Of a stretch of 64,000 nt of DNA, positions 1,010-57,815 are shown in pieces. Under the pieces are notes generated by a model, which was given only the letters and a program-made list of their open reading frames with translations, was not told the DNA's origin and searched no databases. The DNA lies in assembly GCF_004365575.1 (NCBI RefSeq), contig NZ_SOBG01000002.1:192312-256311 (forward strand), written 5' to 3'. Numbering within the stretch: the first letter of the stretch is position 1; every line of letters starts with the position of its first letter. Source of the DNA: Hypnocyclicus thermotrophus (GTDB taxonomy: Bacteria; Fusobacteriota; Fusobacteriia; Fusobacteriales; Fusobacteriaceae). The position numbers and the translations under genes were made by a program.

Positions 1010-3118
1010 CTATTTTTTTAATAATGCTTTTCTACTTACATTTATTTTTCCTTTTTCAGTACTTATAACTTTTACTTCTATTTCATCGCCAACTTTTAAT
1101 ACGTCCTCAACTTTTTCAGTTCTTTCATTAGCTATTTCTGATATATGAAGTAACCCTTCTTTTCCAGGTAAAAGTTCTATAAAAGCACCAAATTTCATTA
1201 ATTTTGTTACTTTACCAATATATATTTCATCTACTTTTATTTCTTTTACTAAATTATTAATAAGTTTAATTGTTTTTTCTAACATATCCCCATCATTTGT
1301 AAAAATAGAAACTCTTCCATTATCTTCAATATCTATTTTTGCACCAGTTTCATCAATAATAGCTTTAATATTTTTTCCAGCTGGTCCTATTAATAAAGAT
1401 ATTTTTTCTGGATTAATATTTAAAGTATGAATTCTAGGAGCATATTTTGATATTTCATTAGGTTCTGAAATAGTATTTTCCATTTTTTCAAGTATAAATA
1501 ATCTAGCATCTAAAGCTTGTTTTAAAGCAATTTCCATAATTTCTTTTGTAATACCTTCTATTTTTATATCCATTTGAAGAGCTGTGATACCTTTTTTTGT
1601 ACCAGCAACTTTAAAATCCATATCTCCTAAATGATCTTCTAATCCCATAATATCAGTAAGAACTATATAATCATCATCTTCTTTAATAAGTCCCATAGCA
1701 ATACCGGCTACATGAGATTTTATAGGTACACCAGCAGACATTAATGCCAAAGAACCGGCACAAATACTTGCTTGAGATGATGAACCATTTGATTCTGTTA
1801 TATCAGAGACTACTCTTATTGTATAAGGAAAATCATTTTCTGAAGGGATAACATATTTTAATGCTCTTTCAGCTAAAGAACCGTGTCCTAATTCTCTTCT
1901 TCCAAGAGCTCTCATAAATCCAGTTTCACCAACAGAATATGGTGGGAAATTATAGTGTAAAAAGAATTTTTTATATGATTCTCCTTCTATTGAGTCAACT
2001 AGTTGTTCATCTTCTTTTGTACCTAATGTAGCTGTAGCAAGAGATTGAGTTTCTCCTCTTGTAAATAATGCAGATCCATGAGTTCTAGGTAATACTCCTA
2101 TTTCCATAGCTAAAGGTCTAATATCAGTTGTATTTCTACCATCAGCTCTATATTTATCATATAAAATGGCATCTCTAACTAATTTTTTCATTAAATCATG
2201 ATAATAATTTTTTAAATCTTTTTCTAATTCTGCTGGAAACTCTTCGGCTTCATTATTTTGTAAATACTCTTCTTTATATTCTTCGACTAATTTTTCTTCT
2301 AATGCATCAATAGCATCATATCTCTCTTGTTTACCTTCAGTTTTTATAGCTTTTTTAAGTTCTTCAGTACCATTTTTATCAACAAAATCTTTAATAGATT
2401 TATCGATTTCTTTTATATCAAAAGTAATCTTTTCTTTTCCAGCTAATTTTTGGAATTCTTCTTGGAATTCACAAATAATTTTAATATTTTCATGACCAAA
2501 CATGATAGCTTCTAACATATCTTTTTCGGATACTTCATTAGCACCAGCTTCTACCATTGTTACAGCTTCTTTTGTACCAGCAACTGATAAATGAATATCA
2601 CTAGTAGCAAGCTCCTCTGGAGTAGGATTTAACACTAATTCGCCATCTATTTTACCAACAACTACACCACTAACTGGTCCTGAAAATGGAATATCTGATA
2701 TAGTTAAAGCAGCAGACGCAGCTATAATTCCTAGATAATCTGGTGTATTTTTTTCATCATATGATAAAGTTGTTACAACTATGTGAATATCATAAAAGAA
2801 ATTTTCAGGGAAAAGTGGTCTAATAGGTCTATCAATAAGACGTGAAATTAAAGTAGCATCAACAGAAGGTTTGCCTTCTCTCTTTACAAATCCCCCAGGG
2901 ACTTTACCTGCAGCATAAAATTTTTCAATATAATCAACAGTTAATGGGAAAAAAGTAGCACCTTCTCTAGGTTCTTTACTTCTTGTAGCTGTAGCTAAAA
3001 GAACAGTTTCTCCATATTCTAATAATACAGAACCATGAGCTTGTCTAGCTATTTTACCAGTTTTAATAGTAAGTTTTCTACCCGCCAAGTCCATTTCTAA
3101 TATTTTTTCATCAAACAT
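1010..3118 (-). CDS. pnp: Polynucleotide phosphorylase
   Basis: This 702-residue protein has the usual PNPase length and order: a first RNase PH domain (about 10-145), a helical linker, a second RNase PH domain (about 335-540), a KH domain ([13 protein letters not shown], about 570-625) and a C-terminal S1 domain ([15 protein letters not shown] to the end). The catalytic region [11 protein letters not shown] is intact. PNPase degrades RNA 3' to 5' by phosphorolysis and also adds heteropolymeric tails. The ATG follows AGGAGG. Upstream lies a long RNA hairpin and a good promoter, suggesting post-transcriptional autocontrol. Confidence 0.97.
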
Positions 3119-3139
3119 AAATACCTCCTAAATTTTTTT

Positions 3140-3224
3140 AAGAGATAAAGTTGTAAATAATAAGAAAAAAACAAATTAATAAATAATTAATTTATCCCTT
3201 ACTACTTACTCCACTTTATCTCTT
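3140..3224 (-). ncRNA. Structured pnp leader: long imperfect duplex
   Basis: In the pnp transcript, 3213-3224 pairs with 3140-3151 (12 bp, perfect), then 3198-3209 pairs with 3153-3164 (12 bp with two G-U pairs), and an 8-bp apical stem forms from 3173-3180 and 3186-3193 with a 5-base loop. The two wobbles would be A-C mismatches on the plus strand, so the fold belongs to the minus-strand RNA. The T-rich interior makes it unlike a terminator. It sits between the pnp promoter and its ribosome-binding site, where E. coli pnp carries its RNase III-cut autoregulatory hairpin. Confidence 0.75.
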
Positions 3225-3245: not shown

Positions 3246-3274
3246 ATTATATCATTAAATAAATTAAAAATCAA
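3246..3274 (-). promoter_or_regulatory. Promoter of pnp
   Basis: On the minus strand TTGATT, a 17-base spacer and TATAAT. The predicted start near 3239 lies about 15 bases before the leader hairpin. Confidence 0.75.
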
Positions 3275-13094: not shown

Positions 13095-13949
13095 TTATAG
13101 ATTTGAATAAACTTCAATTAAAAGATTTTCAATTTCTTTTGACAAAGGAAAATCTTTTTTTGCTAATTCAAGAGTAGTTTTCGCAGCACTATAACGATTT
13201 CTTGCGATCTCTATTTCTGCAATTGCAATATATGCTTCTTTGCTTTTGTTATATTCTAAATATTTATTAAAATTTTTTACTGCTTCAGCAAATTGACCAC
13301 TTAATTTATAACTAACCCCTATTCCAAAATAACTTTCTTTTATTTCAGGATAATTATTAATTAAATATTTATATTCTTCTATAGATTTATCATAATAACC
13401 TAAAAATCTATACATAAGAGCTCTACCAAAAACATTTTTATAATAATTACTTTTATCAGTTAAAAATATCTCTAATGCAGAATTATATTTATTATCTTTA
13501 ATATAGTTATTTCCTATTTCATAAATAAGTTTAGCGTCATTATAATTGACTAATGATAAGTATTCTTTTGAAATAGTGTAATATTCATCCTTATAGTTAT
13601 TATCGGTAGAAATTAATTTAGAAAGGACATTTAAATACGCTTTATAAGTTTTTTCTGTTTTATTATTTTCAAATAATTTTTTTGCAATTTCAAAAGCATC
13701 AGATACTCTATTAATATCTAAAAATAAATTTATCTTTTTTATAATAAATTTCGTATCATTTGGAAAATCTTCTAAATGTGAATCAAGAAGAAATAATGCA
13801 CCGTAGTAATCATTTAGTTTTATTAATTTATCAATCTCTGCAAATTCATTTGTAGTAATAGCAGAATTTGTGGAGAAATTTTCAGTAAAACTAAGTGTCG
13901 TAAATAATAAAAATATTAAAAATAATAAAAATATTAAAATTCTATTCAT
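13095..13949 (-). CDS. Exported tetratricopeptide-repeat protein
   Basis: An N-terminal hydrophobic signal segment (MNRILIFLLFLIFLLFTTLS) precedes several TPR-like helix pairs, for example YDKSIEEYKYLINNYPEIKESYFGIGVSYKLSGQ near 190-225. TPR proteins are scaffolds, and no enzymatic motif is visible. The RBS AAGGAGTG fixes the start at ATG 13949, giving 284 residues; it overlaps the end of xseA by 8 bases, implying translational coupling. Specific role unknown. Confidence 0.75.
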   Translation of the reverse strand: MNRILIFLLFLIFLLFTTLSFTENFSTNSAITTNEFAEIDKLIKLNDYYGALFLLDSHLEDFPNDTKFIIKKINLFLDINRVSDAFEIAKKLFENNKTEKTYKAYLNVLSKLISTDNNYKDEYYTISKEYLSLVNYNDAKLIYEIGNNYIKDNKYNSALEIFLTDKSNYYKNVFGRALMYRFLGYYDKSIEEYKYLINNYPEIKESYFGIGVSYKLSGQFAEAVKNFNKYLEYNKSKEAYIAIAEIEIARNRYSAAKTTLELAKKDFPLSKEIENLLIEVYSNL

Positions 13950-39016: not shown

Positions 39017-39032
39017 GAATTATTAATATATA

Positions 39033-39104
39033 TCTCCAGGGGTGCTGTAAAAGGCTGAGAATATACCCTCAAACCTGATATAGATAATGCTATCGCAGGG
39101 AGTG
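39033..39104 (+). ncRNA. TPP (THI-box) riboswitch
   Basis: It shows the conserved blocks of the thiamine pyrophosphate aptamer: GGGGTGC, GGCTGAGA, ACCCTCAAACCTGAT, AGATAATGCTATCGCAGGGA, with CTCC/GGAG closing the P1 stem. A terminator hairpin follows directly, so ligand binding should end transcription before thiN-thiB. The GAGTGT segment after P1 can pair with ACACT in the 5' arm of the terminator, a possible antiterminator. Confidence 0.96.
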
Positions 39105-39110
39105 AGTGTA

Positions 39111-39146
39111 AAAAAACACTTCTTCATAGCAAGAAGTGTTTTTTGT
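39111..39146 (+). terminator. Riboswitch-controlled terminator
   Basis: AAAACACTTCTT and its complement with a 6-base loop, followed by a T-tract, directly after the TPP aptamer. Confidence 0.9.
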
Positions 39147-56313: not shown

Positions 56314-56769
56314 ATGGAAAAAGCAAAAGATTTTAAACTTTTAAATCAAAATGGTGAAACTAGAAAATTATCAGATTATAAAGGGAAATGGATAGTACTT
56401 TATTTTTATCCTAGAGATAACACTCCAGGGTGTACTCTTGAGGCAAAAGATTTCACTTCATTAAAAAGTGAATTTGAAAAAGAAGAAGCTATAATAATAG
56501 GAATAAGTAAAGATTCTGTAAAAAAACATAAAAATTTTGTAGAAAAACATGATTTGAAAATTGAATTGTTAAGTGATGAAGATCTTAAAGTATTAAAAGA
56601 CTATGGGGTATGGCAATTGAAAAAAATATATGGAAAAGAAAGTTATGGAATAGTGCGTTCTACATTTTTAATTAATCCAGAATTTGAAATAGTTTTTAAA
56701 TGGGAAAAAGTTAAAACAAAAGGGCATGCAGAAACAGTATTAGAAAAATTAAAAGAATTAAAAAGATAG
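56314..56769 (+). CDS. bcp: Thioredoxin-dependent peroxiredoxin, Bcp/PrxQ type
   Basis: A 151-residue peroxiredoxin with LYFYPRDNTPGCTLEAKDF (peroxidatic Cys about residue 41) and RSTFLINPEFEIVFKW. The resolving cysteine five residues on is replaced by Ala-Lys, so it is a one-Cys form. GGGGAG sets the start at ATG 56314. It reduces hydroperoxides, fitting protection of the Fe-S proteins encoded before it. Confidence 0.92.
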   Translation: MEKAKDFKLLNQNGETRKLSDYKGKWIVLYFYPRDNTPGCTLEAKDFTSLKSEFEKEEAIIIGISKDSVKKHKNFVEKHDLKIELLSDEDLKVLKDYGVWQLKKIYGKESYGIVRSTFLINPEFEIVFKWEKVKTKGHAETVLEKLKELKR

Positions 56770-56806
56770 GAGAATATTTTATTCTCCTATCTTTATTTCT
56801 TTTTCC
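56761..56806. terminator. Bidirectional terminator between bcp and the phosphoesterase gene
   Basis: AAAGATAGGAGAAT stem of 14 bp with a 5-base loop and T-rich flanks on both strands; it overlaps the bcp stop. Confidence 0.85.
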
Positions 56807-57815
56807 AATGAAATAAAGAAGTAAACTCTTTAAAAGTTTTAAATTTTTTAGAGAAAATAAATATAATTAAAATATAAATTAATCCAAGGACTACAATAAT
56901 GCTCCAAGCATTGATAGATATAAATGCGTATAGATATATCCATAACGACCAAAAAACTCTATCAAAAATATTATAATCTGGAGAGTGTAATTTAACTAAT
57001 TCATAATTAATACCTTTTTCACTTACATGAACTTTTAAATAATGATAAAAATAATGAGCTTTATCAGTTCCTGCAAGTTCTGCGCCTGCTCCACCAGTAA
57101 TAATATATGGAGTGTTTCCCCATTTACCTTCATAATAAGCATGAATATGTGATGCAAAAATCATAGTAATATTATAGTTGTCAAATAATTTATTTAAATA
57201 TTTAGCTTGAGTAACATTTTTTAGTGAATGACCTGGTTGGATTTTGCTTCTTGGATCAAATAATGGGACATGCATAACAATAAATTTATATTTATAATTT
57301 TTAGATTTTTCAAGTTCTTTATGTAGCCATTTCATTTGCCATTTATCTATATAATTTTCATTTGCATCATCTAAAAAGATGAAGTATGAATTTTTAGTAT
57401 GAAAAGAATAATAAAATTTATCAAAAATTTTATAGTATCGACCTCTTCCATTATCTGCAATTTCGTGATTTCCAATGCTATAAAGCATAGGTTTTTTTAA
57501 TTTTGAAATTTGTTTTAGAAAAAAAGTATATTTTGCTTCACTACCATCAAAGACAATATCACCACCATTTATTACAAATTTAGAATTATCGTTATTTATT
57601 AATTTTATAATTTTATTAAATGTAGTAATAGAATTTTTATTATCTCCAAGAATATCAAAAGTGAAATTTGACATGTTAGTATCTATTTTAGCTACATTGT
57701 CAAAGGTGATATTGTCTTTTAAATTAAAAAAATAATAATGTGTATAAATTTTAATAGTAATGGCAATAATTGACATGCAAATTATAGATATTGTTAAATA
57801 TTTTTTCCATTTCAT
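56793..57815 (-). CDS. Membrane-anchored calcineurin-like metallophosphoesterase
   Basis: A 340-residue protein with an N-terminal membrane span (about 5-28) and a C-terminal span (about 295-320). Between them lies the metallophosphatase fold with FDILGDN, NGGDIVFDG, SIGNHEIADN, VMHVPLFDP and ASHIHAYYEG, the expected metal ligands. The first Asp-x-His is Asp-x-Asn here. The enzyme probably faces the periplasm. Substrate unknown. It is the only minus-strand gene between 30.1 kb and the right edge. Confidence 0.82.
   Translation of the reverse strand: MKWKKYLTISIICMSIIAITIKIYTHYYFFNLKDNITFDNVAKIDTNMSNFTFDILGDNKNSITTFNKIIKLINNDNSKFVINGGDIVFDGSEAKYTFFLKQISKLKKPMLYSIGNHEIADNGRGRYYKIFDKFYYSFHTKNSYFIFLDDANENYIDKWQMKWLHKELEKSKNYKYKFIVMHVPLFDPRSKIQPGHSLKNVTQAKYLNKLFDNYNITMIFASHIHAYYEGKWGNTPYIITGGAGAELAGTDKAHYFYHYLKVHVSEKGINYELVKLHSPDYNIFDRVFWSLWIYLYAFISINAWSIIVVLGLIYILIIFIFSKKFKTFKEFTSLFHWKKK

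What the first reader, a model, noticed from the sequence alone, without database searches (positions are those of the whole stretch)
3140..3224. pnp leader forms a long duplex with wobble pairs only in the sense RNA
The pnp leader has 12 perfect base pairs, a small bulge, 12 more with two G-U pairs, then an 8-bp apical stem, between a good promoter and the RBS. In E. coli, RNase III cuts a long pnp leader hairpin and PNPase then removes the duplex to repress itself. Finding the same layout in a distant phylum would mean either deep conservation or convergent evolution of this control.
Basis: partly seen in the sequence, partly recalled or inferred. Interest (0 to 1): 0.6.

Follow-up and report, generated by a model that had tools for sequence, protein, structure and literature searches.

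The report
Conserved self-control hairpin in pnp leader
In nearly all Fusobacteriota, the mRNA for the RNA-degrading enzyme PNPase starts with a conserved hairpin whose 5' strand keeps a ribosome-blocking strand occupied, so an enzyme that chews that strand away could switch off its own synthesis.

Summary
The hairpin is real, sits exactly at 3140-3224 on the pnp sense (minus) strand, and is the most stable 90-nt fold in the 64-kb window (rank 1 of 12,782). It is a conserved RNA element of the phylum Fusobacteriota: it precedes pnp, once per genome, in 84 of 98 species genomes (23 genera). Lower and upper stems covary strongly. A central duplex (GUAAGUAGUAAG/CUUAUUAUUUAC, two conserved G.U pairs) is almost invariant. 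Rfam has no such family.
The deep-branching relatives lack the element, and three of them still have pnp next to rpsO. The tree needs one gain and one loss.
New here: the 3' strand of the lower stem is an anti-Shine-Dalgarno and the 5' strand mimics the SD. With the 5' arm present the SD is open (mean unpaired probability 0.67 over 23 genera). With the 5' arm removed it closes (0.14; shuffled control 0.41). E. coli's leader does not do this.
Best explanation: RNase III opens the hairpin, PNPase erases the 5' strand, and the freed anti-SD shuts off pnp translation, an RNA-only counterpart of the CsrA step in E. coli. Structure and conservation are shown; the enzymes' roles are inferred.

The parts
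3246..3274 (-). pnp promoter: -35 TTGATT, 17-nt spacer, extended -10 TGATATAAT
   Evidence: Consensus scan. The extended -10 is conserved, usually about 5-25 nt before the hairpin, in most relatives. Predicted start about 3239, not measured.
3140..3224 (-). pnp leader hairpin (whole element)
   Evidence: Folds; covariation; covariance-model hits at pnp across Fusobacteriota.
3213..3224 (-). 5' strand of the lower stem, mimics the SD region (decoy)
   Evidence: Pairs with 3140-3151. While present it keeps the SD open; once trimming enters it the SD closes.
3198..3209 (-). 5' strand of the invariant core GUAAGUAGUAAG
   Evidence: Near-invariant in 25 leaders, two conserved G.U pairs.
3173..3193 (-). 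apical stem-loop (8 bp, 5-nt loop), part of the covarying upper stem
   Evidence: upper-stem pairs have changes on both sides in many sequences.
3153..3164 (-). 3' strand of the invariant core CUUAUUAUUUAC
3140..3151 (-). 3' strand of the lower stem
   Evidence: covaries with the 5' strand.
3137..3147 (-). anti-SD segment UAUCUCUUAAA (overlaps the 3' strand of the lower stem)
   Evidence: Pairs with UUUAGGAGGUA (3132-3122) when the 5' arm is absent: SD unpaired 0.68 with the arm, 0.00 without.
3124..3129 (-). pnp Shine-Dalgarno AGGAGG
1010..3118 (-). pnp, polynucleotide phosphorylase (702 aa)
   Evidence: RNase_PH x2, PNPase, KH and S1 domains in Pfam; solved PNPases match at E down to 3.5e-231.

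Best explanation
The element is a conserved autoregulatory switch at the 5' end of pnp mRNA. Shown by sequence: the hairpin, its conservation and covariation, and two mutually exclusive partners for one strand. In the intact leader the 3' strand of the lower stem pairs with the 5' strand, an SD look-alike, so the real SD is open and pnp is translated. Inferred: RNase III binds the conserved duplex and cuts near the top of the core. The 5' fragment stays paired and translation stays on. PNPase, when abundant, digests that 5' fragment from its new 3' end. Once digestion has passed the core and enters the lower stem, the freed 3' strand folds onto the SD and shuts translation, so PNPase limits its own synthesis.
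For: Present at pnp, once per genome, in 84 of 98 Fusobacteriota genomes (with pnp positions). Covariation in f1-type leaders: 197 double-change cells against 86 +/- 8.5 in shuffles, score 0.470 against 0.198, and 0.15-0.22 when the pairing is slid. In f4-type leaders: 24 against 7.5. SD accessibility in 23 genera: 0.67 intact, 0.14 with the 5' arm removed, 0.41 in composition-shuffled controls; 22 of 23 genera are below their own control (Wilcoxon p = 1e-6). The anti-SD helix forms in all 23 genera sampled (weakest in g22), with varied flanking pairs. In seven leaders tested, simulated 3'-to-5' trimming of a cut 5' fragment leaves the SD open through the core, then closes it. Other genes in the window have open SDs (median 0.77), and leaders that lost the hairpin have open SDs of 0.65-0.95. 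RNase III is universal in good genomes. PNPase has KH and S1 domains. The E. coli precedent has its RNase III cut at the top of the 12-bp stem (PMC5371410 site mapped).
Against: No RNA or expression data were available: the start site, RNase III cleavage and PNPase action are all predicted. The near-invariant core sequence is more than RNase III is known to need, so another protein may read it. The g5+g8 clade lives without the element. In a few leaders the closing is weak (g22, some g2 and g13). Leaders of related species are not independent.
Confidence: 0.6

Rival explanations
1. The invariant core is the binding site of another protein (a sequence-specific dsRNA- or ssRNA-binding regulator, or PNPase bound through KH/S1 without cutting). 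Binding shifts the balance between the lower stem and the anti-SD helix, so the switch is real but not driven by strand erosion.
For: The core is invariant in sequence on both strands, including two G.U pairs, while the stems above and below covary freely. RNase III is not known to demand such a sequence (general knowledge).
Against: No candidate regulator was found. RNase E/G and CsrA do not follow the presence of the element. The gene is PNPase, whose own activity provides the simplest sensor.
Confidence: 0.22
2. The hairpin is a passive 5'-end stabiliser of pnp mRNA, and RNase III cleavage merely starts decay as in the simplest reading of E. coli. The anti-SD complementarity is incidental.
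For: The hairpin starts close to the predicted 5' end in nearly all species. 5' hairpins often protect mRNAs (general knowledge).
Against: A stabiliser needs no invariant core and no anti-SD. The closing effect beats shuffled controls in 22 of 23 genera.
Confidence: 0.1
3. It is an RNA thermometer or cold-shock element that exposes or hides the SD with temperature.
For: PNPase is cold-induced in E. coli (PMC8708148).
Against: Predicted SD openness of the intact leader changes only from 0.50 to 0.73 between 10 and 45 C, and the arm-less form stays closed.
Confidence: 0.03
4. It is a DNA-level feature or a transcription terminator/attenuator rather than an RNA element.
For: It is an inverted repeat between divergent genes.
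Against: No terminator-like site was found. Conserved G.U pairs work only in the sense RNA: the model scores 66 bits sense against 34 antisense, and folding is -31.8 against -17.2 kcal/mol.
Confidence: 0.03

Closest known systems
E. coli pnp leader / PNPase autoregulation (RNase III cut, PNPase degradation of the duplex, CsrA repression of the processed mRNA; Jarrige 2001 and Park 2015 as cited in PMC3997798 and PMC8151843)
   Same: Long leader hairpin just upstream of pnp, a 12-bp stem topped by 1x1 mismatches, RNase III present. The published E. coli cut maps to the top of the 12-bp stem.
   Different: No sequence homology. E. coli pnp follows rpsO; here pnp stands alone with the hairpin at the mRNA's 5' end. 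Removing the E. coli 5' arm does not change SD openness (0.40 to 0.39). CsrA is absent from 9 of the 10 element-bearing genomes checked.
RNase III-cut pnp leaders of Propionibacterium acnes (PMC3848588) and Streptococcus pyogenes (PMC6431027); RNase III repression of PNPase also in Borrelia and Streptomyces (PMC8708148)
   Same: A pnp 5' UTR hairpin with staggered cuts. In S. pyogenes a 22-nt 5' piece is seen and thought to stay paired to the mRNA.
   Different: Those sequences were not fetched and no anti-SD switch is described in the passages read. Here the evidence is phylum-wide covariation plus an SD mimic, without cleavage data.

Membership tests
RNase III/PNPase-autoregulated pnp leader (E. 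coli type) | Long base-paired leader hairpin between the pnp transcription start and the RBS | tested here: met
   (start predicted from the promoter only).
RNase III/PNPase-autoregulated pnp leader (E. coli type) | Cleavage of the hairpin by RNase III | not testable with these tools
   RNase III genes are present; no cleavage data.
RNase III/PNPase-autoregulated pnp leader (E. coli type) | PNPase degrades the 5' strand and represses its own gene | not testable with these tools
   Only the structural consequence of strand removal was computed.
RNase III/PNPase-autoregulated pnp leader (E. coli type) | Homology (shared ancestry) with the E. coli leader | tested here: not met
   No hit of R1 or R2 in the E. 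coli leader with filters off. Deep branches lack the element.
RNase III/PNPase-autoregulated pnp leader (E. coli type) | CsrA represses the processed transcript | tested here: not met
   CsrA gene in only 1 of the 10 element-bearing genomes checked; the window's own genome has it.
Any Rfam 15 family | Covariance-model match at or above the gathering score | tested here: not met
   No family at gathering in the leader; best weak match 13-16 bits with E about 5.
RNA thermometer | SD accessibility set by temperature | tested here: not met
   Small predicted change from 10 to 45 C.

The most novel reading that the evidence does not exclude
In Fusobacteriota an exonuclease reads its own concentration by erasing one strand of an RNA: the erased strand is a decoy Shine-Dalgarno, and its loss releases an anti-SD that closes the gene. 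This is a self-contained RNA switch driven by strand degradation. It arose within the phylum independently of the E. coli system and works without CsrA.
Probability: 0.5. Interest if true: 0.75.

Novelty: new variant of a known kind. Interest (0 to 1): 0.62.

Why it matters
It is an undescribed RNA family (absent from Rfam) that covers nearly a whole phylum, including Fusobacterium, where RNA-based control is little known. It suggests that PNPase self-control by leader processing arose more than once. It also gives a concrete mechanism for how strand removal stops translation: a decoy-SD/anti-SD swap in place of the CsrA step described for E. coli. The model makes sharp mutational predictions, and existing fusobacterial 5'-end maps (dRNA-seq, PMC11005410) could already test it.

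Tried and rejected
Rfam at gathering and at permissive thresholds: nothing. RNase III absence as the reason for loss of the element: rejected, since RNase III is present in g5, g8 and every good genome. RNase E/G as co-lost partner: present in g5/g8 but absent from Fusobacterium and g11, so not correlated. CsrA as partner: mostly absent. RNA thermometer: rejected. Terminator: none. Homology to E. coli: no model match. The shared '12 bp, 1x1, 2 bp, 1x1' pattern of E. coli and the f1 type is noted, but it does not hold in the f4 type and was seen after the fact, so it carries little weight. Apparent absence in g27 was a model miss; those leaders carry the element. Absences in G068, G084, G085 and G093 come from broken or missing pnp contigs. 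A viral-contig scan for the core found nothing. No paper found in the open library discusses a fusobacterial pnp leader.

Full report
OBSERVATION. The window is from a Fusobacteriota genome (G000, 2.2 Mb; its nearest named relative is a 'Fusobacteriales bacterium' MAG). pnp is at 3118-1010 on the minus strand and encodes a canonical PNPase with RNase PH, PNPase, KH and S1 domains. The fold is far better than shuffled sequence (z = -5.4) and is the most stable of 12,782 90-nt windows over both strands of the 64 kb, although only 19% G+C. The antisense strand folds much less well (-17.2 against -31.8 kcal/mol) because the G.U pairs become A.C mismatches.

CONSERVATION. pnp was located in 61 relatives and the leaders were compared. 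Almost all carry a hairpin of the same plan. An alignment of 25 leaders of the window's family (A1), made without structure information, gives an RNAalifold structure in which 13 of 23 pairs have two-sided changes. The full 39-pair structure has 197 cells with compensatory change against 86 +/- 8.5 in shuffles, and a covariation score of 0.470 against 0.198 shuffled and 0.15-0.22 for slid pairings. A second set, Fusobacterium and relatives (A2), has the same plan with a slightly different core (GAGUAAGUAAU/AUUAUUUGCUC), 98.5% of cells paired and 24 double changes against 7.5. The middle duplex behaves differently from the stems around it: AAGUAGUAAG with its partner CUUAUUAUU is almost identical in all 25 A1 leaders, including both G.U pairs. 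One relative (L003) has A-U at both G.U positions. This suggests that something reads the sequence as well as the shape.

DISTRIBUTION. Covariance models built from A1 (R1) and A2 (R2) were run over 98 genomes of the phylum. R1 hits 52 and R2 a further 30. Two more (g27) match R2 in the smaller search, giving 84 of 98 and 23 genera. There is one place per genome, immediately upstream of pnp wherever the pnp position is known; the only extra hit is marginal (G081, E = 0.009). Of the 14 without it, four have a pnp start that is missing from the assembly (G068, G084, G085, G093), one incomplete MAG (G082) has a rearranged leader, and one (G029, genus g8) yielded no full pnp. Real absences are genera g5 and g8 (promoter kept, short open leader), g15, g16, and two deep families f5 and f6. 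In g15, g16 and f5 pnp lies directly after rpsO, the arrangement seen in E. coli. A PNPase tree needs two changes: the element is absent from the deep lineages, and lost once in the well-supported g5+g8 clade. The root and the long branches f5, f6 and g15 are uncertain. The simplest reading is an origin inside Fusobacteriota, so the likeness to E. coli is convergent. E. coli's leader matches neither model with filters off.

POSITION IN THE mRNA. An extended -10 (TGNTATAAT or close) is conserved, and the hairpin usually begins within about 5-25 nt of it, i.e. close to the 5' end of the message. The SD lies 9-13 nt before the start codon and outside the hairpin. In the window the -10 ends at 3246, so the start would be about 3239.

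THE SWITCH. In the window the 3' strand of the lower stem can pair either with the 5' strand or, as UAUCUCUUAAA (3147-3137), with UUUAGGAGGUA (3132-3122), which contains the SD. With the whole leader the SD is open (0.68); without the 5' arm it is fully paired (0.00). This holds across the phylum. The 23 genus means are 0.67 intact, 0.14 with the arm removed, and 0.41 when the stretch between core and SD is shuffled; 22 of 23 genera lie below their shuffled control (p = 1e-6). The alternative helix forms in all 23 genera sampled, though weakly in g22, with SD-flank pairs of several types (A-U, U-A, G-C, C-G, G.U). Controls: other genes in the window have open SDs (median 0.77), leaders that lost the hairpin have open SDs (0.65-0.95), and the E. 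coli leader shows no such change (0.40 to 0.39). If the hairpin is cut at the top of the core and the 5' fragment is left paired, the SD stays open. Trimming that fragment 3'-to-5' changes nothing until the core is gone and the lower stem is entered, and then the SD closes sharply in all seven leaders tested.

MECHANISM. Read together: RNase III cut (inferred), then PNPase digestion of the 5' fragment (inferred), then anti-SD release (computed), then translation off (inferred from SD occlusion). In E. coli, RNase III cleavage of the pnp leader is documented, and the site reported in PMC5371410 maps to the top of the 12-bp stem. [quoted passage not shown] Of ten element-bearing fusobacterial genomes checked only one, the window's own, has CsrA, so an RNA-only closing step is plausible there. 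RNase III is present in all 79 good-quality genomes.

WHAT IS KNOWN. RNase III-cut pnp leader hairpins are also reported in P. acnes (PMC3848588) and S. pyogenes (PMC6431027), and RNase III repression of PNPase in Borrelia and Streptomyces (PMC8708148). The general idea is therefore known and widespread. The fusobacterial RNA family is not in Rfam 15, and no paper on it turned up in the open library.

LIMITS. Everything here is sequence analysis with nearest-neighbour energies at 37 C. No 5'-end, cleavage or expression data were read. Related leaders are not independent, which is why the genus-level test was used. Phyla other than Fusobacteriota could not be searched with the models. The reason for the invariant core is unexplained.

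Noticed in passing
window 39028-39119 (+): TPP riboswitch, the only Rfam gathering hit in the window.
   Followed up: no
L028, L041, L042 (genus g12), leader of pnp: The hairpin lies about 80-90 nt further upstream than elsewhere and is followed by a second structured stretch. CUCCUAUU of the hairpin can pair either with AAUAGGAG in its own 5' strand or with the SD AAUAGGAGG, the clearest case of the SD-mimic arrangement.
   Followed up: partly
L003 and L013, about 1.1-1.2 kb upstream of pnp: An rpsO-like S15 C-terminus lies upstream with other sequence between it and pnp, perhaps a relic of the rpsO-pnp arrangement.
   Followed up: no
G053:C1:1616070-1618180: pnp of this Fusobacterium-group genome is matched in two overlapping pieces with stop codons inside, so it looks frameshifted, yet its leader hairpin is intact.
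   Followed up: no
G000:C8:69104-69259; G037; G038: CsrA occurs in the window's genome and in g15 and g16 but not in the other 16 genomes checked.
   Followed up: no
genera g5 and g8 (L006, L012, L017, L021): One clade has lost the hairpin but kept the promoter; its PNPase level must be set some other way.
   Followed up: partly
window 56721-56850 (-) and 13811-13900 (+): Other unusually stable folds in low-G+C DNA (about -25 to -26 kcal/mol), not examined.
   Followed up: no
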